DNA of 64,000 nucleotides from an uncultured Granulosicoccaceae bacterium (GCA_937951345.1 CALFCF010000048.1:1-64000); one strand, 5' to 3'. Shown: positions 16,374 to 38,846, numbered from the stretch's first letter. Program-made: numbers and translations. Notes: generated from the letters alone by a model not told the origin.

Positions 16374-17153
16374 ATGAAAAACTACGAATCCATTCATTTT
16401 GATCTGGCAGAAAACGGTATTGCTCGTTTGACACTGAACCGCCCGGACAAACTAAACAGTTTGACCGAAGACATGTTCGTGGAAATCAGGGATGCTCTGA
16501 TGCAAGTTCAAACAACCGCAGGCACTCGTTGTCTGGTAATAACCGGGGCGGGTCGAGGCTTTTGTGCAGGACAGGATCTGGGCGATCTCGACTTCTCCAA
16601 CCTCTCTGATACGGTCGAGAAAAACTACAATCCTCTGGTACGTACACTGACATCGCTTGATATGCCGGTAATCGCTGCAGTTAACGGTGTAGCCGCAGGA
16701 GCTGGTGCCAACATCGCACTTTGTTGCGACATCGTGGTTGCAGCACGCTCTGCGAGTTTTGTGCAATCGTTTTCGCAAATAGGTCTTGTACCGGACGCAG
16801 GAGGCACTTGGTCACTGCCGCGTTTGATTGGTGGCCCGCGCGCTATGGGTCTGGCAATGTTGGGCAATAAACTCAGTGCAGAACAGGCATTTGACTGGGG
16901 TATGATCTGGCAGTGCGTCGATGATGAAATGCTGACTGAAAAGGTGGATCAACTGGCATTGCATTTCGCGAGTGCTCCGACTGTTGGCATTGCTTTCACG
17001 AAAAAGCTGATCCGTAATAGCTGGGATAAATCACTCGATCAACAACTAGATCTCGAACGCGATTTTCAAAGTGCTGCCAGTCAAACAACGGATTTCAAGG
17101 AGGGTGTCGACGCGTTTCTGGAAAAACGTCATCCCCGGTTTAAAGGCGAGTAA
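16374..17153 (+). CDS. Enoyl-CoA hydratase/isomerase, PaaG-like
   Basis: A crotonase-fold enzyme of 259 residues. The CoA-binding and oxyanion segments are visible: ITGAGRGFCAGQDLGDL near residues 57-73, and NGVAAGAGANIALCCDIVVA near 103-122. The conserved LVPDAGGTWSLPRLIG follows at about 139-154. The FCAGQDL and VPDAGGTW pattern resembles PaaG, the 1,2-epoxyphenylacetyl-CoA isomerase, rather than FadB-type hydratases. No other paa genes are nearby, so a general acyl-CoA isomerase/hydratase is as likely. It is alone between a gene remnant and the corrinoid module. Confidence 0.8.
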   Translation: MKNYESIHFDLAENGIARLTLNRPDKLNSLTEDMFVEIRDALMQVQTTAGTRCLVITGAGRGFCAGQDLGDLDFSNLSDTVEKNYNPLVRTLTSLDMPVIAAVNGVAAGAGANIALCCDIVVAARSASFVQSFSQIGLVPDAGGTWSLPRLIGGPRAMGLAMLGNKLSAEQAFDWGMIWQCVDDEMLTEKVDQLALHFASAPTVGIAFTKKLIRNSWDKSLDQQLDLERDFQSAASQTTDFKEGVDAFLEKRHPRFKGE

Positions 17154-17504
17154 CAGTACAGGCCGCAACCCTCACCAATGCCAAAGGCACTTCGCGACAG
17201 GCAGGATTCTCCAATTCACCGCCCACAGGGTATTTTGTGCACTGTTCCCAGGACTGGTGCAGGGGTTGCATTGTTCTTACAAAGATTGTCGTAGGCGGGC
17301 CGTGGCGTGTCGTCAGTGGAGAACTTGATCACTGACAAGGGTTAACCGCTGCTGTCTAATAAGATTGCCATTGACCCGGCCGGATTGCTGTACCAGACTA
17401 ATTTGGCCACCAGGCTGGCATACAAGCAGGTTTGCTCTGTAACCGTGAGACACAAGTCTAACTGTTATCCAGAGCGCAATCAGTTTTAACAAAGGGCGGA
17501 TACC
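17154..17504. other. Intergenic upstream of the corrinoid module
   Basis: 351 bases with no convincing coding frame. I looked for a cobalamin-riboswitch B12 box and did not find one. An AAGGGCGG about 8-13 bases before the ATG at 17505 serves as ribosome binding site. A short GCCACCAGGCTGGC hairpin is the only local structure noted. Confidence 0.45.
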
Positions 17505-18218
17505 ATGTCTGAAGAACAATACGACGACGAAGAGGACATCATTCTCTCCGAGCTCAATGATGACGAGCTGGTTGAACAGATGCACGATGACCTCTACAAC
17601 GGACTGAAAGACGAAATTGTAGAAGGAACTAACATCCTGCTGGAACAACGTGGTTGGGGTGCAGACAAAGTCCTGAACGACGCACTTGTCGAAGGCATGC
17701 GCATCGTAGGTATTGATTTCCGCGACGGCATCCTGTTCGTACCCGAAGTACTGATGGCAGCTAATGCCATGAAGGGCGGCATGGCCATTCTGCGCCCGTT
17801 GCTGGCAGACACTGGTGCCCCGCCAATTGGTAAAGTGGTCATCGGCACAGTCAAAGGTGACATCCATGATATTGGCAAAAATCTGGTTGGGATGATGCTT
17901 GAAGGTGCTGGTTTTGAAGTTATCGACCTCGGCATTAACAATCCGGTTGAAGACTACCTTGCAGCTCTTGAAGAACATAAGCCTGATATTCTTGGAATGT
18001 CCGCATTGCTGACGACCACGATGCCTTACATGAAGGTCGTTATTGATACGCTTAAGGAGCAAGGCATACGCGATGACTTTATCGTGCTTGTCGGTGGTGC
18101 GCCGCTCAACGAAGAGTTCGGTGAAGCTGTCGGGGCCGATGCGTATTGTCGAGATGCGGCAGTTGCAGTCGAAACTGCTAAATCACTGGTGGACGCGCGC
18201 CGCGCTGCCGCCAGCTAA
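17505..18218 (+). CDS. Corrinoid (B12-binding) methyl-carrier protein, MtbC/MttC/MtgC-like
   Basis: This small corrinoid protein shuttles a methyl group between a substrate-specific methyltransferase and a second acceptor enzyme. After an acidic N-terminus (residues 1-25) comes the helical cap domain (about 28-105). The Rossmann B12 domain has the cobalt-ligand motif D119-x-H121-x-x-G124 (GDIHDIGKNLVG), the later GMSALLTTTMPYMK and the GGAPLNEEFGEAVGAD loop. Length (237) is normal for the MtmC/MtbC/MttC group. It opens a plus-strand run with DUF1638, a small protein, a pterin methyltransferase and a reductive activator, so its partner is likely an MttB-superfamily enzyme. One such enzyme lies 19 kb away at 37257-38846. 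Confidence 0.92.
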   Translation: MSEEQYDDEEDIILSELNDDELVEQMHDDLYNGLKDEIVEGTNILLEQRGWGADKVLNDALVEGMRIVGIDFRDGILFVPEVLMAANAMKGGMAILRPLLADTGAPPIGKVVIGTVKGDIHDIGKNLVGMMLEGAGFEVIDLGINNPVEDYLAALEEHKPDILGMSALLTTTMPYMKVVIDTLKEQGIRDDFIVLVGGAPLNEEFGEAVGADAYCRDAAVAVETAKSLVDARRAAAS

Positions 18219-18353
18219 CGAGCACTGCACACCGAATGCCGGACTGGAAACCGACCGGCGTTGCCAAACCAGCACTATCGGGACTGAGCAACTGCGTAAT
18301 CGAAACAACTGTGCAGTTAATTCGCTTGGGTGGTGCTACACCCAACGAGATCT

Positions 18354-18358
18354 GGAGG
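18354..18358 (+). promoter_or_regulatory. Ribosome binding site fixing the DUF1638 GTG start
   Basis: GGAGG 5 bases before GTG at 18364. It selects this GTG over an in-frame upstream start at 18043 that would overlap the corrinoid-protein gene by 176 bases. Confidence 0.8.
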
Positions 18359-18363
18359 GTCAA

Positions 18364-18978
18364 GTGAAACGTGCTCTCGTACTGGGTTGCGGTGCCATTG
18401 CCCACGAGTTGGTTGCCGTTTTACGTGCTAACCAGTGGGAGCACATAGATATCCAGTGCCTACCCGCCATCTGGCACAACACACCCGACAAAATTGTTCC
18501 CGGACTGCGTGAAAAGGTTGAGCAGCACGCCGCCGACTACGAACGCATATTCATAGCGTACGGTGACTGCGGTACCGGCGGAAAGCTTGACGCGTTTATT
18601 GATGAGCAGCGTGAGAAAGGTATAGCTCAGCTGGAGCGCCTGCCGGGTGACCACTGCTATGCGTTTTTCAGTGGTGTTGAAGAATTTAATCGCGTCGCAG
18701 GCGATGAAATCGGCACCTTCTACCTGACCGACTACCTGGCAGCTCATTTTGAGCGCTTAATACTGGATGATCTGGGTATCACAAAACACCCCGAGCTACT
18801 GCCCATGTACTTCGGTAACTACACACGCCTTGTGTATCTGTCCCAACAGCCCACTGACGAACTGATCGAAAAGGCCAAATCGGCGGCAACGCAACTGGAA
18901 TTGACGTTTGAGCATATACATACCGGCCTCAAACCGTTCGATAATGCGCTCCAAGGCATCCGTATCGTCGCGAGCTGA
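18364..18978 (+). CDS. DUF1638 protein of unknown function
   Basis: A 204-residue protein of the DUF1638 family, members of which recur beside corrinoid proteins in methylotrophic archaea and some proteobacteria. It starts with a Rossmann-like VLGCGAIAHELVAVL. Cysteines and histidines sit in blocks that look conserved: GCGAIAHE, CLPAIWHN, AYGDCGTGGKLD and GDHCYAFFSG. They suggest a metal, cofactor or thiol function. There is no signal peptide or membrane segment. The open frame extends upstream, but the GTG with a strong ribosome site is the sensible start. Location inside the methyl-transfer module implies a role in it (substrate release, corrinoid handling or methyl acceptor); this is inference. 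Confidence 0.85.
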   Translation: MKRALVLGCGAIAHELVAVLRANQWEHIDIQCLPAIWHNTPDKIVPGLREKVEQHAADYERIFIAYGDCGTGGKLDAFIDEQREKGIAQLERLPGDHCYAFFSGVEEFNRVAGDEIGTFYLTDYLAAHFERLILDDLGITKHPELLPMYFGNYTRLVYLSQQPTDELIEKAKSAATQLELTFEHIHTGLKPFDNALQGIRIVAS

Positions 18979-19100
18979 GTACGAATAGAATTCGTACAAT
19001 CAGCAATTCGCCCCGAACGGTTATCTGTATGCTTGACTGAGCTTTCGCTGATCAGCAATTTGACAGGTATAAGTCGGGAAACAAATAAGGAAAAATTCCT

Positions 19101-19412
19101 ATGGCCAAACTGGTTGTTATTTACTGGCGCGATATACCCTCACAGGTGATCGTTAAGGCTGGTCGAAAAAGTGCCAAAGTCATGCTCAGCGAACGCTTTC
19201 AGGTCGCGATCGACCGCGCAGCAATGCGTGCCGGTGCCGGCACCTCGGACGCCTACATGGCTGACTGGGAGCGTAAGGAAGAAGCCGTTGAGGGCGATAT
19301 CAATGAAATTGCCAATCAGAAAGCGCAGGCGCTCGAAAGTCAGTTCAACGAGGAGAGCCTCGAAAAACTGACGAAGGCCAAAGGACTCCTGTCCGACTGC
19401 AACCCGACCTGA
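19101..19412 (+). CDS. Small 'virulence factor' family protein of unknown role
   Basis: A 103-residue cytoplasmic protein of the family databases call 'virulence factor' (PF13769-like). The name says nothing about its role here. The recognisable core is YWRDIPSQVIVKAGRKSAK followed by LSERFQVAIDRAAMRAGAG, SDAYMADW and a helical acidic tail. Such proteins occur next to DUF1638 and pterin methyltransferase genes, as here (122 bases after DUF1638, 117 before the methyltransferase). The C-terminal ~45 residues look like a single charged helix, so a binding or adaptor function is possible. Confidence 0.8.
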   Translation: MAKLVVIYWRDIPSQVIVKAGRKSAKVMLSERFQVAIDRAAMRAGAGTSDAYMADWERKEEAVEGDINEIANQKAQALESQFNEESLEKLTKAKGLLSDCNPT

Positions 19413-19529
19413 ACTGCAGGTTACGTCAATATTAATGCAGTTCTCCTGACCAGCACCGCCCGCCCTAAGTCACACGGTTAGATCGAACCCAACACCAGGG
19501 ACAATCTTAGTAACATTTGCGAAACTAAT

Positions 19530-20429
19530 ATGACAGACACAATTGTAAGCTCGGCTACCCGCGAACACATCATCGGCGACAACCACCCGTTCACGATCAT
19601 TGGTGAGCGAATTAATCCAACCGGACGAAAAATACTTGCCGAGGAAATGAAAAACGGTGACTTCAGTCGGGTGGAAGCCGATGCGCTGGCACAAGTGCAG
19701 GCTGGTGCACAGATGCTGGATGTCAATGCGGGTATCCCGCTGGCTGACGAACCGGCCCTTCTTGCTCAGGCCATAGAGCTGGTGCAGTCCATTACTGATG
19801 TACCGATATCGATTGACTCCTCCATCATCGACGCACTGGAACGCGGCCTGTCTGTTTACAAAGGTAAGGCGCTGGTCAATTCGGTTACCGGTGAAGACGA
19901 AAGCCTCGACCGTGTACTGCCGCTGGTGGCTAAACACGGTGCTGCGGTGGTTGCGATCTCCAATGACGAGACCGGAATCTCTGAAGATCCTGAAGTACGA
20001 TTCGCAGTAGCCAAAAAGATCGTCGAGCGCGCTGCCGACTATGGCATATCTACCAGCGATGTTGTCATCGACCCGCTGGTCATGCCGATCGGAGCAATGG
20101 CAACAGCCGGCCGACAAGTATTCGATATATTGCATCGCATACGCACAGAGCTAAAGTGCAACACCACCTGTGGTGCATCCAATATCAGTTTCGGGTTGCC
20201 GCAGCGTAACGGCATCAATGGTGCGTTCCTGAGTATGGCGATGGCAGCTGGTATGACTTCGTCCATAACCAATCCGATTCACGAAGAAGTTATGCGCTCG
20301 ATCATGGCGGCCGACGTGTTGATGGGCAATGATAAGGATTGCCTCAACTGGATTCGAAAATACCGCGAACCAGCAGCCGAAGGCGAAGGTGCGCGCGGTC
20401 GACGCCCTTCACGTCGCAGACGCAGCTAG
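19530..20429 (+). CDS. Methylcorrinoid:tetrahydrofolate methyltransferase (pterin-binding, MtgA/MtvA-like)
   Basis: A TIM-barrel pterin-binding enzyme of 299 residues, related to the methyl-H4folate domain of MetH, AcsE and the MtvA/MtgA enzymes of anaerobes. It is expected to move the methyl group between the corrinoid protein and tetrahydrofolate. Visible pterin-binding elements are IIGERINPTGRKILAEEM near residues 27-44, LDVNAGIPLADEPALL, VPISIDSSIIDALERGL, NSVTGEDES and a SNISFGLPQRNGINGAFL segment near residue 215-232. The last 14 residues form a tail with seven arginines (about 286-299), which the catalytic fold does not need. It is 66 bases upstream of the activator gene. Confidence 0.88.
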   Translation: MTDTIVSSATREHIIGDNHPFTIIGERINPTGRKILAEEMKNGDFSRVEADALAQVQAGAQMLDVNAGIPLADEPALLAQAIELVQSITDVPISIDSSIIDALERGLSVYKGKALVNSVTGEDESLDRVLPLVAKHGAAVVAISNDETGISEDPEVRFAVAKKIVERAADYGISTSDVVIDPLVMPIGAMATAGRQVFDILHRIRTELKCNTTCGASNISFGLPQRNGINGAFLSMAMAAGMTSSITNPIHEEVMRSIMAADVLMGNDKDCLNWIRKYREPAAEGEGARGRRPSRRRRS

Positions 20430-20495
20430 TCAGCATCTGCAACGGTTCAACGACTGGACGCAGTAGCCACAGGGCAAACAAGCAGAGTTAAATGC

Positions 20496-22640
20496 ATGAA
20501 TCAGCGAGATAACCCAAAGCCAACTGATTCCCCACAATCTGGCAGTGATCAGGCCCATGTGGTCTTTACGCCAAGTGGCAAACGAGGTGACTTTCCGTTC
20601 GGAACACCCGTACTTGATGCGGCACGCAAGCTTGGTGTTGATCTTGACTCAGTCTGTGGTGGACGGGGTATCTGTGGTCGTTGTCAGATATTGTGCAGTG
20701 AAGGAGAATTTTCCAAGCACGGTATCACCAGCACGCAGGCGCATCTGACTGCCTACGCAGAAGTTGAGGAACGCTACGAGCGCATCAAGGGTGCCATGAA
20801 AACCGGGCGTCGCCTCGGTTGTCAGGCCAAATTGCAGGGTGACGTTGTTATCGATGTTCCGGAAGACAGTCAGGTTCATCGCCAGGTCATTCGTAAAGCT
20901 GCCGATCATGTAGACGTCAAACTCGATCCAACCGTGCGACTTTACTACGTTGAAGTCGAACAACCCGATATGCATGATCCGTCCGGCGACCTTCGTCGTC
21001 TGAAAAAGGCGTTGGCAACGGAATGGGGACTGGACAATCTGGATTGCGAATCCAATCTATTCGGCAACCTGCAAAAAATACTGCGCGAAGGTGAATGGAA
21101 AGCCACAGTAGCTGTATATGACCCGGCGGCACGTACTGCCGATCAGACAGAAACCAGCGACAACCTGACGGCTTATGATAAACCCCGCATCATCAGCGTG
21201 TGGCCAGGATTCCACGACAGAATTTACGGTGTCGCCATCGACGTCGGCTCGACAACCATTGCAGCGCATCTTTGCAGTCTGACAGATGGCGAGGTACTCG
21301 CCAGCAGCGGCGCAATGAACCCGCAAATCCGCTTCGGTGAAGATCTAATGAGCCGCGTTTCGTACGTGATGATGAATCCTGGTGGTGACACTGAGATGAC
21401 GAACGCGGTACGTGAAGCGATCAACGAATTGTTAGTCGTTGTTTGCACTGAAGTAGCCAGTACTGTTGAAGGCCATGAACAGGCATCAATCAACGACATT
21501 CTGGATCTGACATTTGTCGCCAATCCGGTGATGCATCACCTGCTTTTGGGAATCGACCCTGTCGAACTTGGTGGCGCACCGTTCGCACTTGCATTCGATG
21601 AGTCTGCGTCGTTAAGGGCTGCTGAAATGGGCATCGCGGCCAACCTGAACGCCAGAGCCTACGTCCTGCCTTGCATTGCCGGGCATGTGGGCGCTGATAC
21701 CGCCGGTGTCATGCTGGCCGAGCAACCCCATTTGCTTGACGATATCAGCCTGCTTGTTGATGTCGGTACCAATGCCGAGATTGTGCTTGGAAACCGGGAA
21801 CGGATGGTGGCTTGTTCCAGCCCGACCGGCCCGGCCTTTGAAGGTGCACAAATCAGCGGTGGACAGCGCGCCGCACCCGGCGCTATAGAGCGAATTCGTA
21901 TCGATCCTGAAACACTGGAGCCGAAATTCAGCGTTATTGGATCCGAACTCTGGTCGAATGATGAAGGTTTTGAAGAATCCGTCAACAATATCGGTGTGAC
22001 CGGGATTTGCGGTTCCGGCATCATCGAAGCGATCGCCGAGATGTTCCTTGCCGGCATTATCGACACTGACGGTGTTATAGATGGTGCAATGGCTGCAAAA
22101 AGCGAACGCATTTTGGCGGATGGCCGGACGTTCTCCTATCTGCTGCATGATGGTGATGTCAGAATAATAATCTCGCAGAACGATGTGCGTCAGATCCAAC
22201 TCGCCAAAGCCGCGCTCTATGCAGGCGTAAAACTTCTGATGGATCGTCTCGGTATAGAAAAAGTACAACGCATCAGACTTGCCGGTGCGTTTGGCAGCCA
22301 CATAGACGTCAAATACGCGATGGTGCTAGGACTCATACCCGATTGCGTGCTTGAGCAGGTGACCTCAGCGGGTAATGCTGCCGGAAACGGTGCACGGATT
22401 GCGTTGATGAATGCAAACTCGCGCCGGGAAGTGGAATCACTGGTACATAATGTAGAGAAAATCGAAACCGCGGTTGAACCGAAATTTCAGGAACACTTTG
22501 TTCTGGCAATGGCCTTCCCGCATAAGTCAGATGAATTCACTGAATTAGGCAAGGTGGTCAATTTGCCGGAGCGGAAATCCACTAGTGACGCCGGACGTGA
22601 GCGAAGCAGGAAGTCACGCCGCAGAAAACGCGCAGGCTAG
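20496..22640 (+). CDS. [2Fe-2S]-ASKHA corrinoid reductive activator (RACo/RamA-type, DUF4445)
   Basis: Proteins of this group use ATP to reduce inactive Co(II) corrinoids back to Co(I). The 714-residue sequence begins with a plant-type [2Fe-2S] domain: Cys54, Cys60, Cys63 in CGGRGICGRC and Cys109 in RRLGCQ. A linker follows, then the ASKHA ATPase core with GVAIDVGSTTIAAHLC (about residues 247-262), LLVDVGTNAEIVLG (about 420-433) and IRLAGAFGSHIDVKYAM (about 591-607). This layout is that of RACo, with a single N-terminal [2Fe-2S] cluster, rather than RamA with C-terminal 4Fe-4S ferredoxins. The last ~15 residues form an Arg/Lys-rich tail. It ends the module. Confidence 0.9.
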   Translation: MNQRDNPKPTDSPQSGSDQAHVVFTPSGKRGDFPFGTPVLDAARKLGVDLDSVCGGRGICGRCQILCSEGEFSKHGITSTQAHLTAYAEVEERYERIKGAMKTGRRLGCQAKLQGDVVIDVPEDSQVHRQVIRKAADHVDVKLDPTVRLYYVEVEQPDMHDPSGDLRRLKKALATEWGLDNLDCESNLFGNLQKILREGEWKATVAVYDPAARTADQTETSDNLTAYDKPRIISVWPGFHDRIYGVAIDVGSTTIAAHLCSLTDGEVLASSGAMNPQIRFGEDLMSRVSYVMMNPGGDTEMTNAVREAINELLVVVCTEVASTVEGHEQASINDILDLTFVANPVMHHLLLGIDPVELGGAPFALAFDESASLRAAEMGIAANLNARAYVLPCIAGHVGADTAGVMLAEQPHLLDDISLLVDVGTNAEIVLGNRERMVACSSPTGPAFEGAQISGGQRAAPGAIERIRIDPETLEPKFSVIGSELWSNDEGFEESVNNIGVTGICGSGIIEAIAEMFLAGIIDTDGVIDGAMAAKSERILADGRTFSYLLHDGDVRIIISQNDVRQIQLAKAALYAGVKLLMDRLGIEKVQRIRLAGAFGSHIDVKYAMVLGLIPDCVLEQVTSAGNAAGNGARIALMNANSRREVESLVHNVEKIETAVEPKFQEHFVLAMAFPHKSDEFTELGKVVNLPERKSTSDAGRERSRKSRRRKRAG

Positions 22641-22734
22641 TAACCCGCAAGCAATCCAAAGCATAAAAATAGAAAATAAATTTTAAACCACGTTTTGCAA
22701 TTTCCCGTTACCTAATAGTTGCAGCTTGCGGGTT

Positions 22735-22905
22735 ACTAAAAGCCATCTCAAAATCGATCGGGGACGCCGAGTCCTGCACGCTGATCCTGCGTTGTGTACC
22801 GTTCTGCGCTGCTCATTTGCTGCGTGTAAACTGCGCTGCTCGAACGCCACACGCCTTGGCTGAGCACGCAATCTCAATTTTGAGATGCCTTCTACTTTTT
22901 GATGC
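22735..22905 (-). repeat. Dispersed intergenic repeat, copy B (convergent gene ends)
   Basis: Between two convergent stop codons. On the minus strand, 22815 down to 22772 starts with GAGCAGCGCAGAACGG and matches the copy at 44836 in about 40 of 44 positions. It then continues, after a 14-base insertion, into a block containing TCGATTTTGAGATGGCT. A local palindrome ATCTCAATTTTGAGAT lies at about 22871-22886. It resembles a REP-like element or bidirectional terminator. Confidence 0.7.
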
Positions 22906-22916
22906 TTTGGTAATTT

Positions 22917-23495
22917 CTATTGTGCAGCAAGTAAAGCCTCAAATTTCTTATCAGCGGTTTTTATGTACCCGGCAATGTTTTTAGACCAGGCTTTCTGTAT
23001 GCGCGCATCGTAATTCAGATAAAGTTTGTCATCTACGATCTGCCATTGATCGGGTTCAATTTTAACAACATAGTCATTGGCAATACCGTAAGCACAATAG
23101 CCACCATACTGCGGTGCATATTTCTCAGGCGCTGCAACAAACAATTCTTTATGCTCTTCGCTTGAGAACTGCCAGGTAGCACCCTGCCACTGTGTTGTAA
23201 TGTTTGCGCTACCTTCAACAGCCTTACCTTCAGTAAAGTATGCGACAGTGTCGTAGCCACGAATAGCAATTCCATTGTGTTTGAATTTTCCAAACACACC
23301 TTCTTTATCCAGTGTGTTAATTTCAGGCGCACCGGCATAGGCTATTCCACTGAATACAGATAACACCAGAAGCAGTGTCACTACAACTGAGGCTACAGCT
23401 GAGGCTGAGGCTGCAACTGAAGCTGGAACTGAAACTCGACGCAATGATGTGGAATCAGAAACTATTTTTTTTGTATAAGTTGTTGCTGAAAACAT
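22917..23495 (-). CDS. Secreted YHS-domain protein (copy 1)
   Basis: A YHS-domain protein; the domain often binds metal and occurs in copper and arsenic related proteins. Start chosen at the ATG at 23495, 5 bases after a GGGAGA-type ribosome site; the more upstream ATG at 23519 overlaps that site. A long N-terminal signal sequence with the hydrophobic segment VVTLLLVLSVFSGIAYA ends near residue 60. The YHS core follows: IRGYDTVAYFTEGKAVEG, WQGATWQFSSEEHKELF and KYAPQYGGYCAYGIAND (single Cys-Gly-Tyr-Cys-like loop). Its paralogue is at 55983-56492. Likely periplasmic; function unknown. Confidence 0.85.
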   Translation of the reverse strand: MFSATTYTKKIVSDSTSLRRVSVPASVAASASAVASVVVTLLLVLSVFSGIAYAGAPEINTLDKEGVFGKFKHNGIAIRGYDTVAYFTEGKAVEGSANITTQWQGATWQFSSEEHKELFVAAPEKYAPQYGGYCAYGIANDYVVKIEPDQWQIVDDKLYLNYDARIQKAWSKNIAGYIKTADKKFEALLAAQ

Positions 23496-24127: not shown

Positions 24128-24174
24128 GTATCAATGACTCCGTAAAGCAGCCAACCACGCAGTAAAAACTAACA

Positions 24175-26529: not shown

Positions 26530-29289
26530 TCAGGCAGGTACCGCGGCTTCAGCAGGTTCAATCGCGACCGCGCAATACTTGAATTCGGGAATCTTGCCGT
26601 AGGGGTCCAGCGAATCGTTAGTTAGCAGGTTAGCCGCTGCCTCGTGGTAGCAAAACGGGATAAATATCTCACCGCTCGACAGGCCGTTATCGATACGTGC
26701 CGTGGCGGTAATTTTTCCGCGACGTGATTTCACCGTGACTCGCTCACCAGCAGCTATTGATAGTCGCGTCATGTCATCCTGATTCATCGTAATGACAGCA
26801 CCGGGTTCTACTGCATCAAGTACTCGAGAGCGTCGAGTCATTGATCCGGTGTGCCAGTGCTCTAGCTGGCGGCCGGTCATCAGTACGAACGGATAATCAC
26901 TATCGATCGTTTCATCCGCACGGATTAACAAGGATGGCACCAGTTTGGCGCGACCACTAGGCGTCGGGAATGTTTCCTGGAATACCACAGGCTGACCGGG
27001 ATCATCAGCATCTGCACAAGGATAGGTAACCGAGTGGTTTTCCTGCAAGCGGTCCCAGCTGATACCGGTAATGCTCGGCATGGCCTGACGCATTTCTTCG
27101 TAGACCTCTGAAATATCCTTGTAGTCCCAGTTCAGACCCAGACCATTGGCGATAGCTTCGATGATACGGAAGTCCTGTCGACATTCACCGGGCATATCCA
27201 CTGCGCGACGCCCCATTTGCACACGGCGATCGGTGTTGGTCACTGTGCCGTCTTTCTCAGCCCAGGCAGAGGCCGGCAAAATCACATCAGCATAAGCTGC
27301 CGTCTCGGTCAGAAACAGATCCTGAACCACCAGGTGAGACAAGGTTGCCAGCGCTTCACGCGCGTGATTAAGGTTCGGGTCAGACATGGCCGGGTTTTCA
27401 CCCATGATGTACATGCCGTGGATCTGTCCTTCCAGGACTGCATCCATAATTTCAACGACTGTGAGGCCGGGTTTATCATCGAGCGTAGTCTTCCAGAATG
27501 ATTCGAAGTGCGCCTTGGCGTCCGGGTTATCAACGCGACGATAGTCCGGATACATCATCGGGATCAGACCGGCATCAGAGGCGCCTTGCACGTTGTTCTG
27601 TCCACGCAGTGGATGCAATCCTGTGCCCGGGCGACCGATCTGGCCGGAAATCATGCACAGGGATATCAGACATCGGGCGTTGTCAGTGCCGTGCACGTGT
27701 TGCGATACACCCATACCCCAGAAAATCATCGAGCCGCTGGAACGAGCGAACAAACGTGCGACGTCACGTAACACCTCAGCCTTGATACCGCACACAGCTT
27801 CCATCTTTTCAGGGCTGAATTCTTTCAGGTGTTCAGCCAGTTCCTCATAACCTTCAGTGCGTGCCTGCACAAATTGCCGGTCAACCAGGTCTTCATCGAT
27901 GATCGTGTGCATGATCGCATTGAGCATGGCGACATCGGTGTCCGGACGGAATTGCAGCATGTAGTCAGCATGACGTGACAACTCTGTCTGACGCGGATCC
28001 ATCACGATCAGCTTTTTCCCAGCCTTTGCTGCATTTTTGAAAAATGTTGCGGCGACCGGGTGGTTGCCGGTCGGGTTAGCGCCGATTACAACAATTACCT
28101 CAGCGTTGCTGACATCAGCGACCTGATTCGATACTGCACCGGACCCGACACCTTCAAGCAATGCGGCAACACTTGAGGCGTGACACAGGCGCGTACAGTG
28201 ATCAACGTTGTTGCTGCCAAAACCCGTGCGCACCAGCTTTTGGAATAGGTACGCTTCCTCGTTACTGCCTTTTGCTGAGCCGAAGCCAGCGAGCCCGGTC
28301 GGGCCGTGATTCGATTTGATGTCTTTCAAACCGCTGATGGCAAGTTCCAGTGCTTCATCCCAGGACGCTTCACGAAACATTTTCGATGGATCAGCCCGAT
28401 CGAAAAACTCATTCATGCCTTTGGCGACACCTTCCTTGCGGATCAGTGGCTTTGTCAAACGCTCCGGGTGGTTCAGGTAGTCAAAACCGTAGCGACCTTT
28501 CACACACAGGCGATTTTGATTCGCCGGCCCGTCACGTCCTTCAACAAAGGCGATTTTGTTGTCACGTACATGGTAGGTAAGTAAACAACCGACACCACAG
28601 TACGGGCAGACCGAATCCACTTTCTTTTCAATTTTCTGTACACCGGCCTCTTCAGCCGGCATCAGCGCACCAGTTGGACAAGCTTGCACACATTCACCAC
28701 AGGCAACGCAGGAACTCGCGCCCATGTCATCACCTAGATCGAAAACGATCTGCGCATGACTGCCACGCATCGCCATACCGATTACGTCGTTAACCTGTTC
28801 TTCACGACAAGCGCGAACACAGCGCGTACATTGAATACAAGCATCCAGATTAACGGCAATGGCCGGGTGTGATAAATCTGACACCGGTTGATGGCGTGGT
28901 GCAAAGCGGGGCTTACCGACATCAAGTTTTTCAGACCAGAAATCAAGCTCCGAGCGCTTCGTGTATTCATTTTCAACAACGTCAGACTGCAGCAGTTCCA
29001 ACACCATGCGCTGCGACTTTAGCGAACGTTCGTTTGCCGTGTGAACCTTCATACCGTCAACAGGCTTGCGCACACACGATGGTTGCAGCGTGCGTTCACC
29101 TTCAATTTCCACAACACAGGCGCGGCAATTGCCATCCGCTCGCATGCCTTCTTTAAAGCACAGGTGCGGAATTTTGACCTTGTTGCGTTTTGCGGCCTGT
29201 AGGATGGTTTCATCTGCGTGAGCCTCAACGGACTGACCGTTAAGCTCGAATGTCACCATCGGCGCTATATCATCTGCACGCCTTGCCAT
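26530..29289 (-). CDS. fdhA: NAD-dependent formate dehydrogenase, catalytic alpha subunit
   Basis: Oxidises formate to CO2 at a Mo- or W-bis-pterin site and passes electrons through Fe-S clusters to the NADH-binding subunit. Domains in order over 919 residues: an N-terminal [2Fe-2S] ferredoxin domain (FELNGQSVEAHADETIL...CFKEGMRADGNCRACVV), 4Fe-4S segments including CIQCTRCVRACREEQV and SCVACGECVQACPTGAL, the CPYCGVGCLL cluster site of the molybdopterin domain, and the catalytic segment HCTRLCHASS. The metal ligand is Cys369, not selenocysteine. The C-terminal MopB domain ends near the stop. It overlaps fdhB by one base (TAATG). The FdhD maturation factor is not in the window. Confidence 0.93.
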   Translation of the reverse strand: MARRADDIAPMVTFELNGQSVEAHADETILQAAKRNKVKIPHLCFKEGMRADGNCRACVVEIEGERTLQPSCVRKPVDGMKVHTANERSLKSQRMVLELLQSDVVENEYTKRSELDFWSEKLDVGKPRFAPRHQPVSDLSHPAIAVNLDACIQCTRCVRACREEQVNDVIGMAMRGSHAQIVFDLGDDMGASSCVACGECVQACPTGALMPAEEAGVQKIEKKVDSVCPYCGVGCLLTYHVRDNKIAFVEGRDGPANQNRLCVKGRYGFDYLNHPERLTKPLIRKEGVAKGMNEFFDRADPSKMFREASWDEALELAISGLKDIKSNHGPTGLAGFGSAKGSNEEAYLFQKLVRTGFGSNNVDHCTRLCHASSVAALLEGVGSGAVSNQVADVSNAEVIVVIGANPTGNHPVAATFFKNAAKAGKKLIVMDPRQTELSRHADYMLQFRPDTDVAMLNAIMHTIIDEDLVDRQFVQARTEGYEELAEHLKEFSPEKMEAVCGIKAEVLRDVARLFARSSGSMIFWGMGVSQHVHGTDNARCLISLCMISGQIGRPGTGLHPLRGQNNVQGASDAGLIPMMYPDYRRVDNPDAKAHFESFWKTTLDDKPGLTVVEIMDAVLEGQIHGMYIMGENPAMSDPNLNHAREALATLSHLVVQDLFLTETAAYADVILPASAWAEKDGTVTNTDRRVQMGRRAVDMPGECRQDFRIIEAIANGLGLNWDYKDISEVYEEMRQAMPSITGISWDRLQENHSVTYPCADADDPGQPVVFQETFPTPSGRAKLVPSLLIRADETIDSDYPFVLMTGRQLEHWHTGSMTRRSRVLDAVEPGAVITMNQDDMTRLSIAAGERVTVKSRRGKITATARIDNGLSSGEIFIPFCYHEAAANLLTNDSLDPYGKIPEFKYCAVAIEPAEAAVPA

Positions 29290-31070
29290 TAACCTTCTCC
29301 TTCCGCGTTATCGCTACTGATGCAGAAGCTGCTTATGCTTATCGGCGATTCAACATCGGCATCAGTGTCAGCTTTCTCCGATATTCCGAGCTCCTGTGGA
29401 AAATACTTAATCACACAACGTAAAGGATTCGGTGCCGCCTGACCCAGACCACAAATGGACGCATCCTCCATCACTGTGGCCAGATCCTCGAGTTTTTCAA
29501 TGTCCCAATCGGCTTCTGCCATCAGCGCAACCGCTTTCTCAGTGCCGACGCGGCAGGGTGTGCATTGACCGCAGGACTCGTGAGCAAAGAACTTCATTGA
29601 GGTTAATGCAGCCTGTTTTGCAGAATCTTTGTCAGATAAAACCACAATCGCAGCAGAGCCAATAAAACAGCCGTATTCCTGCAGTGTGTCGAAATCAAGC
29701 GGCACATCACCGAGCGATGCCGGCAAGATGCCACCAGATGCACCTCCGGGGAAGTACCCGTAGAAATCATGGCCATCAAGCATACCGCCACAATATTCGT
29801 CTATCAGTTCACGCATTGAAATACCTGCCGGTGCAAAGTGCACCCCGGGATTCTTTACTCGCCCGGATACCGAAAAACTGCGCATGCCGGTTCTGCCATT
29901 ACGCCCTTCACCAGTGAACCACTCGTGGCCCTTTTCGATGAGATCCCGGATCCAATAGAGCGTTTCAAAATTGTGTTCAAGTGTCGGACGACCGAACAGA
30001 CCAACCTGCGCAACAAACGGGGGACGCAAACGCGGCAAACCGCGCTTACCCTCGATTGATTCAATCATCGCTGACTCCTCGCCACAGATGTAGGCACCTG
30101 CACCGCGACGCAACTCGATCGATGGCAGAGCAAACGGTGGGTTAGCTGTCAGTTTTGCCAGTTCCTGTTCAAGGATTTCCCGCCCCAGTGCATATTCGTC
30201 GCGTGTATACACCCAAATCTTATCAATACCGACGACTGCAGCCGCGATCAGCATGCCCTCAAAAAACCGGTGTGGATCGCGTTCAATGTAGTGGCGGTCT
30301 TTGAATGTACCGGGCTCGCCTTCATCAATGTTGACAGCCATAAATCGCGGCGCATCCATGCCGGAAACTATTTCCCATTTCATGCCTGCCGGAAATCCTG
30401 CACCACCCAGGCCGCGCAGACCACTGTCTTTGAGCAGGGAAATAATTTCTTCACGCTTACGCTCGCCACTTTGACAAGCTTTGGCAAGCGCATAACCGCC
30501 ATCTGACAGATAAGCATCCAGACCGATATGGCGCATCGGGTTATCCGGAATGATTTTTTTGTTTTGGACTTGTGATGTAACCGACTTGACGGTTGCTTTA
30601 TCGACAGTATTAAAACCTACGACCGCGGCAGGCGCTTCTGCACAACGACCGATGCACGGTACTGGTTGAATACGCACACTGTCACCAAGCGCCTTGGTTA
30701 AACCGGCAATCAGCTCGGAGCTGCCCGCAAGTTCACAACTGACGGAATCACATACTCTGACTGTCAGTTCAGGTGGCGCCTCATCACGTTCAGTCACAAC
30801 ATCAAAGTGATGATAAAAAGTCGCTACTTCGTACACTTCAGCTGGAGCGAGTTTCATCTCGTGCGCGAGCGCCACCAGGTGGACAGCGGACAGATGTCCG
30901 TACGCATCCTGAATACGATGCAGATGTTCTATCAAAAGATCACGTTGACGCGATGCATCGCCGAGCAGATCCCGCACCTGCATCAACGCATTGATATCTA
31001 CCAGACGCCCTTTGCCCTGCCCTTTTTTACGGCGGTGCTTTTTACGAATATCTGCAGGCGCTGTTGCCAT
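29289..31070 (-). CDS. fdhB: Formate dehydrogenase, NADH-binding subunit (NuoE-NuoF fusion)
   Basis: The 593-residue diaphorase subunit transfers electrons to NAD+. Residues about 20-170 are a thioredoxin-like [2Fe-2S] domain (CDSVSCEL... PCIGRCAEAPAAVV), equal to NuoE. The rest is NuoF-like: FMN/NADH loops GLRGLGGAGFPAGMKWEI and NIDEGEPGTFKDRHYIERD, RRGAGAYICGEESAMIESIEG, and the C-terminal 4Fe-4S motif SCGQCTPCRVGTEKA with a distant Cys. In Fds-type enzymes these are separate FdsG and FdsB; here they are fused. Translationally coupled to fdhA. Confidence 0.93.
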   Translation of the reverse strand: MATAPADIRKKHRRKKGQGKGRLVDINALMQVRDLLGDASRQRDLLIEHLHRIQDAYGHLSAVHLVALAHEMKLAPAEVYEVATFYHHFDVVTERDEAPPELTVRVCDSVSCELAGSSELIAGLTKALGDSVRIQPVPCIGRCAEAPAAVVGFNTVDKATVKSVTSQVQNKKIIPDNPMRHIGLDAYLSDGGYALAKACQSGERKREEIISLLKDSGLRGLGGAGFPAGMKWEIVSGMDAPRFMAVNIDEGEPGTFKDRHYIERDPHRFFEGMLIAAAVVGIDKIWVYTRDEYALGREILEQELAKLTANPPFALPSIELRRGAGAYICGEESAMIESIEGKRGLPRLRPPFVAQVGLFGRPTLEHNFETLYWIRDLIEKGHEWFTGEGRNGRTGMRSFSVSGRVKNPGVHFAPAGISMRELIDEYCGGMLDGHDFYGYFPGGASGGILPASLGDVPLDFDTLQEYGCFIGSAAIVVLSDKDSAKQAALTSMKFFAHESCGQCTPCRVGTEKAVALMAEADWDIEKLEDLATVMEDASICGLGQAAPNPLRCVIKYFPQELGISEKADTDADVESPISISSFCISSDNAEGEG

Positions 31071-31118: not shown

Positions 31119-32786
31119 TCAGAACAAACCTTCAATGACACCGTCTGAATTCATTTTTATGCGGTTAGCTGCAGGTTCACGTGGCAGTCCGGGCATGGTC
31201 ATGATGTCGCCGCAGACAACAACTACAAATCCGGCACCGGCAGACAATCGCACTTCCCGCACAGGCAACACATGATCTGTCGGTGCGCCTTTCGCATTAG
31301 GATCATCTGAAAAGCTGTATTGAGTTTTAGCGATACAGACAGGCAGGTTTCCGAATCCGGCTGCTTCAAGGTCTGCAACCTGAGTACGCGTTTTCTGGTC
31401 AACCGCGATATCGCTGGCACGATAGATTTTCGTCGCGATACTGCGTACCTTGTCCAACAATGGCATGTCATCAGGGTATGAGACCTTGAAGTCGGCCTTG
31501 CCGCTATCTGCAAGCGCAACAACTTCACGCGCCAGATCTTCTGTTCCTGCGCCCCCTTCAGCCCAGTGGTTGGCATCAATTGCTTTAACACCCAGTCCTT
31601 CACACACGTCACGAACAGTTTTCATTTCAGCATCGGTATCAGCTGAAAAGCGATTGATGGCGACTACAACCGGCACACCATATGACTGCACATTCTCTAT
31701 GTGGCGTGCCAGATTACTGCAGCCATCTTTAACCGCTTGAACGTTTTCATTGGCCAGATCGTCTTTGCCCACACCACCGTGCATTTTCAACGCGCGAATG
31801 GTTGCCACAAGCGTCACTGCATCGGGACGTAAACCCGACTGGCGGCATTTGATATCAAAAAACTTCTGCGCACCCAAATCAGCGCCAAAACCGGCTTCAG
31901 TCACAACATAGTCTGCAAGCTTCAGCGCTGATGTTGTGGCGATAACCGAGTTACAGCCATGCGCGATATTAGCGAACGGACCACCGTGAATAAATGCAGG
32001 ATTGTGCTCCAGTGTTTGCACAAGGTTCGGACTAATAGCGTCTTTTAAGAGCACAGCCATCGGCCCCGGTGCCAGTATTTCAGATGCACGAATGGGTTTG
32101 CGATCCCGGGTGTAGGCGATAACAATGTTACCCAGACGTTCTGTCAGATCATCGATATCACGCGCCAGACAAAAGATCGCCATGACTTCCGACGCCACCG
32201 TAATGTCAAAGCCGTCAGTACGGGGATAACCGTTACCCGGTCCACCGAGTGAGCTCGTTATCTGGCGTAAGGAGCGATCATTCATATCAACAACACGGCG
32301 CCAGGCGACACGGCGTGAATCTATACCGGCTTCGTTACCCCAGTAGATATGGTTGTCAAGCAAAGCAGACAGCAGCGCATGCGCTGCTGTGATGGCGTGA
32401 AAGTCACCCGTGAAATGCAGGTTTATATCTTCCATTGGAATGACTTGCGCGTAGCCGCCACCTGCTGCGCCACCTTTCATACCGAAACAAGGGCCCAGGC
32501 TCGGTTCACGCAAACAAACCATCGCGTTCTTACCAATTCTATTCAATCCGTCTGTCAGCCCAACTGATGTTGTGGTCTTGCCCTCACCAGCCGGTGTCGG
32601 TGTGATCGCTGTAACCAGTATCAACTTGCCGTCCGGCTTGTCCTTCAAGGACTTGATGTAGTTCATGTCGACCTTGGCTTTTGTCTGCCCGTAAGGCATC
32701 AAGGCTTCGTTGGGGATGCCGAGCTTGTCCGCTATGTCGCCAATCGGTTTGATTTCGGCGGCTTGCGCAATATCGATATCGCTCAT
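31119..32786 (-). CDS. fhs: Formate-tetrahydrofolate ligase
   Basis: Interconverts 10-formyl-H4folate with formate, H4folate and ATP. In the methyl-oxidation direction it yields ATP and feeds formate to the dehydrogenase next door (48 bases downstream). The 555-residue sequence has the family P-loop [16 protein letters not shown] (about residues 62-77), [38 protein letters not shown] and [20 protein letters not shown]. Length is normal. An 18-bp perfect palindrome lies 35-52 bases before its start. Confidence 0.96.
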
Positions 32787-35413: not shown

Positions 35414-36613
35414 CTAACGCTGATGAATATCTGTCGCAGGTGTTTTCGCTTTTTGCATATTTGCCTGCACATTCGAGCGGTTGATTGAAGGATGCGTTGT
35501 TCTGCGCAGTGGACTAACTCGTCCAGATGTATCGGCCACACGCCCCTTTTTACCGGCTGCCGCTTCAGTCGTAGATTTCCCGGTTGCAGATTTAGTGCCG
35601 CTGCGCCTGGCCGGGGTAGTGGTGTCATCCAGCAAACCGGCAGCCCGTCGACGCTCATCTCGTGGTGGAACAGAAAACGTATCACGATAGCACTTGCTGA
35701 AATGTGGAGCAGAAACAAAACCACAAGCGAGCGCAACATCTACGATAGGTTTGGATGTTTGCAACAACAATTGCCGTGCACGTTCGAGACGCAACTCCAG
35801 GTAATATCGAGTCGGCACACAGTTAAGGTAACGTTGGAACAAGCGCTCAAGCTGGCGTCGAGACAGACCAACATGATGCGACAACTCATCCAGAGTCATC
35901 GGTTCTTCGATGTTGGCTTCCATCAGTGACACCGCTTCTGCAAGTTTCGGTTGGCTCGTTCCGATGCGTTGTGTCAACGGTACACGTTGGCGGTCATGTT
36001 GATCTCGAATGCGTTCGCACATGAACTGCTCTGATATGGCCGTTGCCAATTCTGCACCGTTCTGACGGCGTATCTCGTGCAACATCATGTCAATTGGCGC
36101 TGTTCCTCCAGCGCATGTGTAACGGTCACGATCTATTTCAAACAGTTCCGGTGAAATGACCAAATGCGGGAATTCTTCACGTGCACTGGCTATGTTCTCC
36201 CAATGAATAGTGAAGCGGTAACCATCCAGCAATCCCGCGCGGGCAAGTACGTAACTGCCAGTACACACCGCACCCAGTACTATCTGAGTCTTGGCCAGGC
36301 TACGTAACCAGTTGATGGGAATTTCGGTGTCGAGCTTATGAATGTGAATACCACCGCAAACAATTACTGCATCGAATGCATCAACGTTTTCAACAGCTGC
36401 AATCGAATAGTCTGGAGATATTTCAAGACCATTACTGCAAGTAATCGGCGCACCGGATTCTCCGATAGTCGCCCAGCTATATAAGGGTTCACCGCTTAGC
36501 TGATTAGCCATGCGAAACGGTTCGATCGCCGATGTAAACGCAAGCAGCGAAAAATTATCCAGTAACAGGAAACCGATTCGAACGGCTTGATTCTCAGATT
36601 TCTTGGATATCAA
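35414..36613 (-). CDS. GlxA-family transcriptional regulator (DJ-1-like plus AraC HTH)
   Basis: A 399-residue regulator. Residues about 10-190 form the class-I glutamine amidotransferase-like ligand domain (FLLDNFSLLAFTSAIEPFRMAN, VLGAVCTGSYVLARAGLLDG, CAGGTAPIDMMLHEI). Residues about 225-325 are the AraC HTH (EPMTLDELSHHVGLSRRQLERLF, VDVALACGFVSAPHFSKCYRDTF). This architecture is shared with GbdR, CdhR and related regulators of betaine and carnitine catabolism in Pseudomonas. It is therefore a plausible activator for the MttB-like gene just upstream on the same strand. An unusual low-complexity basic/Thr/Ser tail of ~65 residues follows the HTH. Confidence 0.9.
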   Translation of the reverse strand: MISKKSENQAVRIGFLLLDNFSLLAFTSAIEPFRMANQLSGEPLYSWATIGESGAPITCSNGLEISPDYSIAAVENVDAFDAVIVCGGIHIHKLDTEIPINWLRSLAKTQIVLGAVCTGSYVLARAGLLDGYRFTIHWENIASAREEFPHLVISPELFEIDRDRYTCAGGTAPIDMMLHEIRRQNGAELATAISEQFMCERIRDQHDRQRVPLTQRIGTSQPKLAEAVSLMEANIEEPMTLDELSHHVGLSRRQLERLFQRYLNCVPTRYYLELRLERARQLLLQTSKPIVDVALACGFVSAPHFSKCYRDTFSVPPRDERRRAAGLLDDTTTPARRSGTKSATGKSTTEAAAGKKGRVADTSGRVSPLRRTTHPSINRSNVQANMQKAKTPATDIHQR

Positions 36614-37256: not shown

Positions 37257-38846
37257 TCAATAGTTAGCATCCGGCGTTTCGCTTTTTTTCCTTGCCACAA
37301 ATTCAGTTAACGCGTCATCAACTGCAGCATCGAGAGGCGGTGCTTGATATTCATCCAGGGATTTCTTCCACAGAGTATGCGCGCGCTTCATCGCATCCTT
37401 TGATCCTTCAGATTCCCATTGCTCAAAACTATTATTATCAGCAATCGACGATCGATAAAAGGCTGTTTCAAAGTTACGCTGTGTATGATCGCATCCGAGA
37501 AAATGCTGTCCCGGCCCTACATCCTGCAATGCATCCATAGCCTGCCCATTTTCAGAAAGATCTACACCGTTGAGCAACACACCGATCATTCCGGCCTGAT
37601 CGCTGTCCATCATGAACTTCTCGTAGCCCATAACCAAACCACCTTCCAGCCAACCCGCTGTGTGTAACATGAAGTTCACTCCGGCCAGGGCTGCGGACTG
37701 CAACGTATTGGCGCTTTCGTAGGCAGCCTGAGCATCAGGGACTTTTGAAGAACACAAACCACCACCACTACGATAAGGGACACCCAGACGTCTTGCCAAT
37801 GCGGCTGTGATGTACATGACCATCGATGGCTCAGGTGTACCAAATGTTGGCGCACCACTTTGCATGGATACGGCACTGGAGAAAGTTCCGAAAACAACTG
37901 GAGCACCCGGCTTGATCAGTTGCACAAGCGCCATTCCAGCCATGGCCTCTGCCAATATCTGTGTGCAGGTACCCGCCACCGTAACCGGTGACATGGCGCC
38001 AGAGAGAATAAACGGTGAAACAACGCACGCCTGGTTGTTAGCTGCATACACTTTTGCCGCACCCAACATCGTATCGTCGAAGGTCATTGGCGAGTTGGCG
38101 TTAATGAGACTCGTCATGACAGTTTTTGGTTCGTTGGTTACAGGGTCAACAAAGTCGTCGCCAAAAGCTAACTTTGCCATGTCGATACTATCCTGCGCAC
38201 GTTCAGGCGCAGTTACCGATCCCATAAACGGTTTATCCGAGTACCGAAGATGGGCATCGATCATATCGAGATGGCGCTTGTTAACCGGCAGATCAACCGG
38301 CTCACAAAGCGTTCCACCGGAATGATGCAAATGCGGCGATTGGTAAGCGAGTTTTACAAAATTACGAAAGTCTTCAATCGTGGCGTAGCGACGCCCACCG
38401 TCAAGATCACGAACAAAAGGCGGACCATAGGCAGGCACCAAAACAACATTCGGCCCACCGATTTGAACTGACTTTTCAGGATTGCGTGCATGTTGCGTAT
38501 AGATAGCCGGAGCATTGTCTGTGATTAATTTTCGACACAGACCTTTCGGGAAACGCACACGTTCACCATTAACATCAGCCCCGGCATCACGCCACATTTG
38601 CAACACTTCAGCATCATCACGGAATTCAATACCGATTTCTTCAAGGACACGATCTGCATTGCTCTCGATAAGAGTCAACTGCTCTTCATCGAGAATACTG
38701 AATACCGGTATCTTTCTTTTAATGTAAGGCTGGGCCTTGACTGCAGAGCTGCGCGCCGCTCGTTTTGCTTCCCTTGCACTGCCACGACGCCGACTGCGTC
38801 GTTTCGCATTCAAATCAGTTACATTATTGGTTCCGTCTGTGGACAT
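37257..38846 (-). CDS. MttB-superfamily methyltransferase lacking pyrrolysine (betaine-type candidate)
   Basis: The MttB superfamily transfers a methyl group from trimethylamine (pyrrolysine enzymes) or from quaternary amines such as glycine betaine, proline betaine or carnitine (non-pyrrolysine enzymes) to a corrinoid protein. The 529-codon frame is open throughout with no in-frame amber codon, so it belongs to the second kind. Family signatures are FSILDEEQLTLIESNADRVL (about 49-68), HHSGGTLCEPVDLP, SVTAPERAQDS, LINANSPMTFDDTMLGAA, SPFILSGAMSPVTVAGT, and FGTFSSAVSMQSGAP followed by FGTPEPSM. Residues 15-34 are strongly basic (KRRSRRRGSAREAKRAAR). It lies next to a GlxA-type regulator, 15 kb from the corrinoid module. 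Substrate unproven. Confidence 0.9.
   Translation of the reverse strand: MSTDGTNNVTDLNAKRRSRRRGSAREAKRAARSSAVKAQPYIKRKIPVFSILDEEQLTLIESNADRVLEEIGIEFRDDAEVLQMWRDAGADVNGERVRFPKGLCRKLITDNAPAIYTQHARNPEKSVQIGGPNVVLVPAYGPPFVRDLDGGRRYATIEDFRNFVKLAYQSPHLHHSGGTLCEPVDLPVNKRHLDMIDAHLRYSDKPFMGSVTAPERAQDSIDMAKLAFGDDFVDPVTNEPKTVMTSLINANSPMTFDDTMLGAAKVYAANNQACVVSPFILSGAMSPVTVAGTCTQILAEAMAGMALVQLIKPGAPVVFGTFSSAVSMQSGAPTFGTPEPSMVMYITAALARRLGVPYRSGGGLCSSKVPDAQAAYESANTLQSAALAGVNFMLHTAGWLEGGLVMGYEKFMMDSDQAGMIGVLLNGVDLSENGQAMDALQDVGPGQHFLGCDHTQRNFETAFYRSSIADNNSFEQWESEGSKDAMKRAHTLWKKSLDEYQAPPLDAAVDDALTEFVARKKSETPDANY

What the first reader, a model, noticed from the sequence alone, without database searches (positions are those of the whole stretch)
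17505..22640. Aerobic-type corrinoid methyl-transfer module with two unassigned proteins inside
Five plus-strand genes encode a B12 methyl carrier, a DUF1638 protein, a 103-residue protein, a pterin-binding methyltransferase and a [2Fe-2S]-ASKHA reductive activator. The first, fourth and fifth roles follow from known families in anaerobes (MtgB/MtbC/MtvA/RACo systems). The surroundings here (180-kDa glutamate dehydrogenase, TCA and quinone enzymes) point to an aerobe, where oxygen would oxidise Co(I), and two proteins in the middle have no assigned role. This looks like a modified, little-described version of the anaerobic methyltransferase system.
Basis: partly seen in the sequence, partly recalled or inferred. 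Interest (0 to 1): 0.8.

Follow-up and report, generated by a model that had tools for sequence, protein, structure and literature searches.

The report
Aerobic B12 methyl-transfer operon with helpers
These five genes are a member of a recently described vitamin-B12 enzyme system that lets aerobic bacteria strip methyl groups from glycine betaine and make methionine; the only really unstudied part is a small, always-present protein misleadingly named "virulence factor".

Summary
In detail: 17505-22640 holds, in order, a B12 methyl carrier (MtgC type), DUF1638, a 103-aa PF13769 protein, a methyl-H4F:corrinoid methyltransferase (MtgD type) and a RACo-type [2Fe-2S]/ASKHA activator. It is an aerobic methyl-transfer module, but not an undescribed one: the same parts are the split methionine synthase plus reactivation proteins of Phaeobacter (Price 2018) and the dual methionine synthase/glycine-betaine demethylase of Ruegeria (Mausz 2025), where DUF1638 already has a mutant phenotype. 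The missing pieces are here: MtgE and nine MttB genes in the genome; one MttB next to a GbdR-type betaine regulator, formate-H4F ligase and formate dehydrogenase inside the window; sarcosine oxidase on the same contig. MetE and the MetH reactivation domain are absent, so the module probably also makes methionine.

New: the 103-aa protein is mentioned in neither paper, yet occurs with DUF1638 and RACo in 17/17 sampled genomes, lies beside other module genes in 80/80 loci found by anchoring on it, and matches no solved fold. DUF1638 carries an invariant Cys3-His set shared by two distant subfamilies. The window's operon has lost metV-metF2, kept there by every relative examined. New member of a known kind, with an untested subunit.

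The parts
17505..18218 (+). MtgC-type corrinoid (B12) methyl-carrier protein, 237 aa
   Evidence: PF02607 + PF02310; DIHDIG motif; only stand-alone methyl-corrinoid carrier found in the genome; 88-91% identical to MtgC of Granulosicoccaceae MAGs
18364..18978 (+). DUF1638 protein, 204 aa, start GTG; invariant C9, H38, C69, C98
   Evidence: PF07796; start and ribosome-binding site read; conservation; AF2 model pLDDT 92.6
19101..19412 (+). PF13769 ('Virulence factor') small protein, 103 aa; invariant W9 R10 D11 P13 Q15 R22 L29 R32 F33 D38 A41 M42 Y52 W56 G95
   Evidence: PF13769; alignment of 43; AF2 model pLDDT 91.5 with no PDB fold match at E<=0.001
19530..20429 (+). MtgD-type methyl-H4F:corrinoid methyltransferase, 299 aa
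   Evidence: PF00809; NF005719 366 bits against cut-off 259; closest solved relatives are pterin-binding methyltransferases and MetH fragments
20496..22640 (+). RACo-type reductive activator, 714 aa: N-terminal [2Fe-2S] ferredoxin domain (C54, C60, C63 in CGGRGICGRC), linker, ASKHA domains
   Evidence: PF00111, PF17650, PF17651, PF14574; 3zyy E 3e-83
37257..38846 (-). non-pyrrolysine MttB-family methyltransferase, the probable MtgB that feeds the module, 529 aa
   Evidence: best of nine PF06253 matches in the genome, no in-frame stop; >=60% identical relatives in 24 of 80 module loci
35414..36613 (-). GbdR-type (DJ-1/PfpI + AraC) choline/betaine regulator next to the MttB gene
   Evidence: NF052371 484 bits against cut-off 480; 69-72% relatives lie in the module loci of three family members
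31119..32786 (-). formate-tetrahydrofolate ligase (C1 oxidation branch)
   Evidence: NF010030 921 bits against cut-off 652
26530..31070 (-). formate dehydrogenase: alpha subunit 26530-29289 and NuoF-like subunit 29289-31070
   Evidence: TIGR01591 775 bits against cut-off 666 for alpha; second subunit matches NuoF models below their cut-offs

Best explanation
The five genes are the core of the aerobic, B12-dependent MtgBCDE system. An MttB-family enzyme (MtgB, probably 37257-38846) moves a methyl group from glycine betaine to Co(I) on MtgC. MtgD moves it on to tetrahydrofolate for oxidation (MetF-type enzyme, formate-H4F ligase, formate dehydrogenase), or runs backwards so that MtgC can hand a methyl group to MtgE and homocysteine, making methionine. 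When oxygen or a side reaction leaves Co(II), the RACo-type protein re-reduces it at the cost of ATP. DUF1638 probably works with RACo through a conserved Cys3-His site (metal or Fe-S cluster); this is inferred. The 103-aa PF13769 protein is probably a structural or docking subunit at the MtgD end of the complex; this is also inferred. Shown here: gene content, order, conservation, co-occurrence, and absence of canonical MetE and of the MetH reactivation domain. Shown by others in orthologues: MtgC and MtgD need for both pathways, and RamA-like and DUF1638 need for methionine synthesis. Inferred: substrate in this organism, direction of flow, role of PF13769.
For: Domain content. Gene order MtgC-DUF1638-PF13769-...-MtgD-RACo in about 50 of 80 loci, many of the remainder being cut by contig ends, plus Rhodobacteraceae loci holding PF13769-MetF-MtgD with or without RACo. 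In eight family or genus relatives the fuller order is MtgC-DUF1638-PF13769-MetV-MetF2-MtgD-RACo, one of them (L175) ending at its contig edge inside metF2. Published genetics: MtgC/MtgD of R. pomeroyi needed for methionine synthesis and betaine growth (PMC12478193); PGA1_c15200 RamA-like and DUF1638 needed for methionine synthesis (PMC5764234). Own genome lacks PF02965 and PF01717 MetE but has an MtgE-type enzyme (NF005718 458 bits against 338) and nine MttB. GbdR + MttB, formate-H4F ligase and formate dehydrogenase in the window and SoxAB on the same contig. GbdR-MttB directly beside the module in family relatives L177, L181, L182.
Against: No NCBIfam equivalog for MtgC reaches its cut-off (206 against 370 and 171 against 310 bits), so membership rests on neighbourhood and similarity, not on a curated model. 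In the window MtgB is 15 kb away and on the other strand. Betaine is not proven: nine MttB paralogues suggest several substrates. A rival claim says Bmt (the MtgE protein) makes methionine directly from betaine or DMSP without B12 (PMC12366255).
Confidence: 0.87

Rival explanations
1. The module serves only methionine synthesis (a split MetH); the MttB genes use other carriers or do something else.
For: Canonical MetE and the MetH reactivation domain are absent and an MtgE-type gene is present; in Phaeobacter the five genes were first found as methionine-synthesis genes.
Against: MtgC is the only stand-alone methyl-corrinoid carrier found in the genome, so nine MttB enzymes would have no partner. 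GbdR-MttB sits beside the module in relatives. The R. pomeroyi mtgC mutant cannot use betaine even with methionine added.
Confidence: 0.07
2. It is an anaerobic-type methylotrophy module (as in Desulfitobacterium or acetogens) picked up by transfer and used only in anoxic niches.
For: RACo, MtgC and DUF1638 all have relatives in anaerobes; Methanosarcina acetivorans rings for DUF1638 and RACo.
Against: The genome has a strong haem-copper oxidase gene. The same genes are used by aerobically grown Ruegeria and Phaeobacter. MtgC falls far below the anaerobic MtgC model cut-offs. PF13769 is absent from M. acetivorans.
Confidence: 0.03
3. The PF13769 protein is a passenger with no part in methyl transfer.
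For: No published phenotype; not among the five methionine-synthesis genes of Phaeobacter, though a 300-bp gene may simply have had too few insertions; PF13769 also occurs in Bacillus subtilis (control), which showed no RACo or DUF1638.
Against: 17 of 17 sampled genomes with it also have RACo (Fisher p 3e-17) and DUF1638; 80 of 80 loci carry at least one other module gene; it keeps its place beside MtgD across three arrangements of the MetF genes.
Confidence: 0.15

Closest known systems
MtgBCDE system of Ruegeria pomeroyi DSS-3 (Mausz et al. 2025, PMC12478193)
   Same: MtgC, MtgD, RamA-like, DUF1638, MtgE and several MttB-family proteins; aerobic; no MetH in most carriers; betaine genes co-located in marine bacteria
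   Different: In Ruegeria the genes are scattered; here five lie in one operon-like run. The PF13769 gene is not mentioned in that paper's main text. metF2 is not in this operon.
Split methionine synthase and B12 reactivation proteins of Phaeobacter inhibens (Price et al. 2018, PMC5764234)
   Same: B12-binding, pterin-binding and homocysteine parts, RamA-like activator and DUF1638 as separate genes; no PF02965 domain
   Different: Scattered genes; betaine use and PF13769 not discussed
RACo / AcsV activators (3zyy of Carboxydothermus)
   Same: Same four-domain build; E 3e-83 over residues 21-677
   Different: Partner is a single-chain MtgC carrier rather than the CoFeSP of the acetyl-CoA pathway; NF040756 382 bits, below its cut-off of 800
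RamA of Methanosarcina
   Same: ATP-driven corrinoid activator sharing the ASKHA part (TIGR04270, 92 bits against cut-off 500)
   Different: Here a [2Fe-2S] domain at the N terminus; RamA has [4Fe-4S] clusters at the C terminus (the RamA side from general knowledge)
Anaerobic glycine-betaine system MtgB/MtgC of Desulfitobacterium hafniense
   Same: Non-pyrrolysine MttB passes methyl to a corrinoid protein and then to H4F
   Different: MtgC well below both NCBIfam MtgC cut-offs; different lineage according to PMC12478193

Membership tests
Aerobic MtgBCDE methyltransferase / split methionine synthase | separate MtgC and MtgD genes | tested here: met
Aerobic MtgBCDE methyltransferase / split methionine synthase | MtgE homocysteine methyltransferase in the genome | tested here: met
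   NF005718 458 bits against cut-off 338, contig C61
Aerobic MtgBCDE methyltransferase / split methionine synthase | MtgB (non-pyrrolysine MttB family) | tested here: met
   nine PF06253 genes, one in the window beside GbdR; which one uses betaine is not shown
Aerobic MtgBCDE methyltransferase / split methionine synthase | RamA/RACo-like activator and DUF1638 | tested here: met
Aerobic MtgBCDE methyltransferase / split methionine synthase | classical MetH and MetE usually missing | tested here: met
   no PF02965, no PF01717; the assembly is 95.5% complete
Aerobic MtgBCDE methyltransferase / split methionine synthase | needed both for methionine synthesis and for betaine growth | not testable with these tools
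   needs mutants; shown only in orthologues (PMC12478193)
RACo-type reductive activator | N-terminal [2Fe-2S] domain, linker, middle and ASKHA C-terminal domains | tested here: met
   four Pfam domains over cut-off in order; 3zyy E 3e-83
RACo-type reductive activator | ATP-driven Co(II) to Co(I) reduction | not testable with these tools
   biochemistry needed
Anaerobic MtgC (NCBIfam NF047996 / NF047995) | score over the curated cut-off | tested here: not met
   206 against 370 and 171 against 310 bits
Canonical MetH | one chain with the PF02965 reactivation domain | tested here: not met
   no PF02965 in the genome
Pfam PF13769 Virulence_fact | score over the gathering cut-off | tested here: met
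   84 bits against 25
Pfam PF13769 Virulence_fact | a role in virulence | not tested
   the name comes, from memory, from a staphylococcal protein; nothing here suggests virulence

The most novel reading that the evidence does not exclude
The PF13769 protein is an unrecognised, required subunit of the aerobic MtgBCDE machine, with a fold not represented among solved structures, that docks MtgD to MtgC or shields the reactive cobalt, while DUF1638 is a Cys3-His metalloprotein that passes electrons between the RACo [2Fe-2S] cluster and cobalamin.
Probability: 0.35. Interest if true: 0.55.

Novelty: new member of a known kind. Interest (0 to 1): 0.33.

Why it matters
The system is a main route of glycine betaine breakdown in the ocean and a methionine synthase in many bacteria without MetH. 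A small protein fixed in it but unmentioned in the papers found is a direct, cheap target for genetics. The DUF1638 Cys3-His set gives a testable idea for a protein that has a mutant phenotype but no mechanism. It also shows that a PF13769 'virulence factor' annotation in these bacteria is misleading.

Tried and rejected
(1) 'The PF13769 protein is an aerobe-only add-on': all 29 RACo-bearing genomes, with or without it, have PF00115 matches, a family that to my knowledge also takes in cbb3 oxidases and nitric-oxide reductases, so a plain aerobe/anaerobe split is not supported. It follows the RACo subtype instead (17 of 18 high-scoring against 0 of 11 low-scoring, E >= 1e-73), and it is absent from M. 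acetivorans. (2) 'This genome has no MetF': PF02219 finds only a broken copy with three in-frame stops (C70) and a weak ORF, but that ORF (C72) is a 27-34% relative of the MetF2-type protein that sits between PF13769 and MtgD in Rhodobacteraceae, so the step is probably covered. (3) PF13769 fold search: no hit at E<=0.001 in PDB or viral models. (4) DUF1638 fold search: only weak two-lobed alpha/beta hits, best E 1e-3 with TM 0.26; no solved relative by sequence. (5) No Rfam match, cobalamin riboswitch included, in 15500-24500; promoter and terminator scans no better than shuffles.

Full report
What is there. The five reading frames are real and in the stated order. The first carries both B12-binding domains and the DxHxxG, SxL and GG motifs. 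The second is DUF1638; its start is best placed at GTG 18364, just behind GGAGGG, not at 18043. The third is PF13769, a Pfam family called 'Virulence factor'. The fourth passes the cut-off of NF005719, methyltetrahydrofolate:corrinoid methyltransferase. The fifth has the four RACo domains in order and matches the solved RACo 3zyy at E 3e-83. Gaps between genes are 66-145 bases and no terminator better than chance separates them, so one transcript is plausible but not shown.

It is a known system. Price et al. 2018 (PMC5764234) showed that Phaeobacter inhibens makes methionine with a synthase split over three genes plus a RamA-like protein and a DUF1638 protein; mutants in all five are rescued by methionine. 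Mausz et al. 2025 (PMC12478193) showed in Ruegeria pomeroyi that the B12-binding part (MtgC) and the pterin-binding part (MtgD) are each needed both for methionine synthesis and for growth on glycine betaine, and reported the genes in Alpha-, Gamma- and Deltaproteobacteria. So 'little-described' and 'oxygen is a problem' do not stand as written. Neither paper's text gives a role to a PF13769 protein: the word 'virulence' does not occur in Mausz et al., and no paper held contains 'PF13769'. One further paper reports that Bmt, the MtgE protein, can make methionine straight from betaine or DMSP without B12 (PMC12366255), so the division of labour is still argued.

The rest of the pathway is in this genome. 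The genome has no PF02965 reactivation domain and no PF01717 MetE. It has two stand-alone homocysteine methyltransferases, one of them NF005718 at 458 bits against a cut-off of 338, the MtgE type. MtgC is the only stand-alone methyl-corrinoid carrier among five B12-binding matches. There are nine MttB-family genes. One lies in the window at 37257-38846, next to 35414-36613, which passes the NCBIfam cut-off for GbdR, the betaine regulator. Formate-H4F ligase (31119-32786) and formate dehydrogenase (26530-31070) are also in the window, and sarcosine oxidase alpha and beta genes lie at about 68-74 kb of the same contig. In three family relatives GbdR and MttB stand directly beside the module. This makes glycine betaine the leading substrate, an inference from neighbourhood.

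Conservation as a unit. All 80 carry at least one other module gene; MtgD is in 74, RACo in 65, DUF1638 in 58 and MtgC in 56, and many loci are cut by contig ends. Taxa named include Granulosicoccaceae, Woeseiaceae, Thioglobus, Porticoccaceae, Azoarcus, Thauera, Halomonas, Pseudomonas aestuarii, Ruegeria and Phaeobacter. The 80 are those most like the window's protein, so the sample leans to near relatives. In an independent draw of 200 genomes of the phylum, PF13769 occurs in 17, and all 17 have RACo and DUF1638 (Fisher p 3e-17 and 6e-16; related genomes are not independent, so these values overstate the case). Among 29 RACo genomes, PF13769 is in 17 of the 18 with the high-scoring RACo and in none of the 11 with the divergent type.

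The small protein. Fifteen positions are invariant in 43 sequences (W9, R10, D11, P13, Q15, R22, L29, R32, F33, D38, A41, M42, Y52, W56, G95). The model is confident (pLDDT 91.5; strands 2-9, 12-20, 23-28, helices, a further strand 56-63, two helices) and has no PDB match at E<=0.001. It sits before MetV-MetF-MtgD in 35 loci, before a Rhodobacteraceae-type MetF2 and MtgD in 23, and directly before MtgD in 15. So it keeps station with MtgD whichever MetF is used, which is why I place it at the MtgD end. It has no cysteine or histidine among its invariant residues, so a docking or structural role is likelier than a redox one. This is inference.

DUF1638. C9, H38, C69 and C98 are invariant in 47 module proteins and in all ten members of a distant subfamily that goes with the divergent RACo; C32 is confined to the aerobic-module type. 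C9, C69 and C98 lie just at or after ends of predicted strands. A metal or cluster site working with RACo is the natural reading; zinc structure or corrinoid contact remain open.

What is odd about this copy. All eight family or genus relatives examined have metV and metF2 between PF13769 and MtgD (L175 ends at its contig edge inside metF2), and PF02219 matches lie at that spot in 15 of 15 relatives carrying PF13769. Here the gap is 117 bases. A second metF is broken at C70. A distant MetF2-like gene at C72 may do the job.

Verdict. A member of the known aerobic MtgBCDE system, in compact operon form, with one conserved subunit that the papers found here do not mention.

Noticed in passing
window 19413-19529; L174, L175, L177, L178, L180-L183: metV-metF2, present between PF13769 and MtgD in every family or genus relative examined, are missing from the window's operon.
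   Followed up: yes
L147:4747-5233 (contig C70 of the same genome): A broken MetF remnant with several in-frame stops, about half length; may be a pseudogene.
   Followed up: partly
L146:4615-5589 (contig C72): A 324-aa weak MTHFR-family protein, 27-34% identical to the MetF2-type proteins that sit between PF13769 and MtgD in Rhodobacteraceae and relatives.
   Followed up: yes
genome contigs C48, C4, C7, C33, C81, C68, C1 (two), C42: Nine MttB-family genes; those on C33 and C81 lie beside FAD oxidoreductase/GcvT-like genes of the dimethylglycine or sarcosine dehydrogenase kind, that on C68 near the metK and SAH hydrolase genes (recognised by eye).
   Followed up: partly
window 26530-32786: Formate dehydrogenase and formate-H4F ligase, the C1 oxidation branch, unremarked in the finding.
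   Followed up: yes
contig C48, about 68-74 kb (L157:11267-16537): Sarcosine oxidase genes soxG-like, soxA, soxD-like and soxB on the same contig as the module.
   Followed up: partly
window 10982-15922; L174, L175, L178, L180, L181: The 180-kDa glutamate dehydrogenase gene also lies near the module in several family relatives (45-75% identity).
   Followed up: partly
window 41155-43719: A large family-10 glycosyl hydrolase with a bacterial Ig domain, between a PTP-like protein and a DUF445 gene.
   Followed up: no
L148:5488-6462: An ArsR-type HTH fused to a SAM methyltransferase domain, directly beside the MtgE gene; possibly a methionine-cycle regulator.
   Followed up: no
L185:9502-11769: An open frame holding a run of unknown bases, an assembly gap in contig C48.
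   Followed up: no
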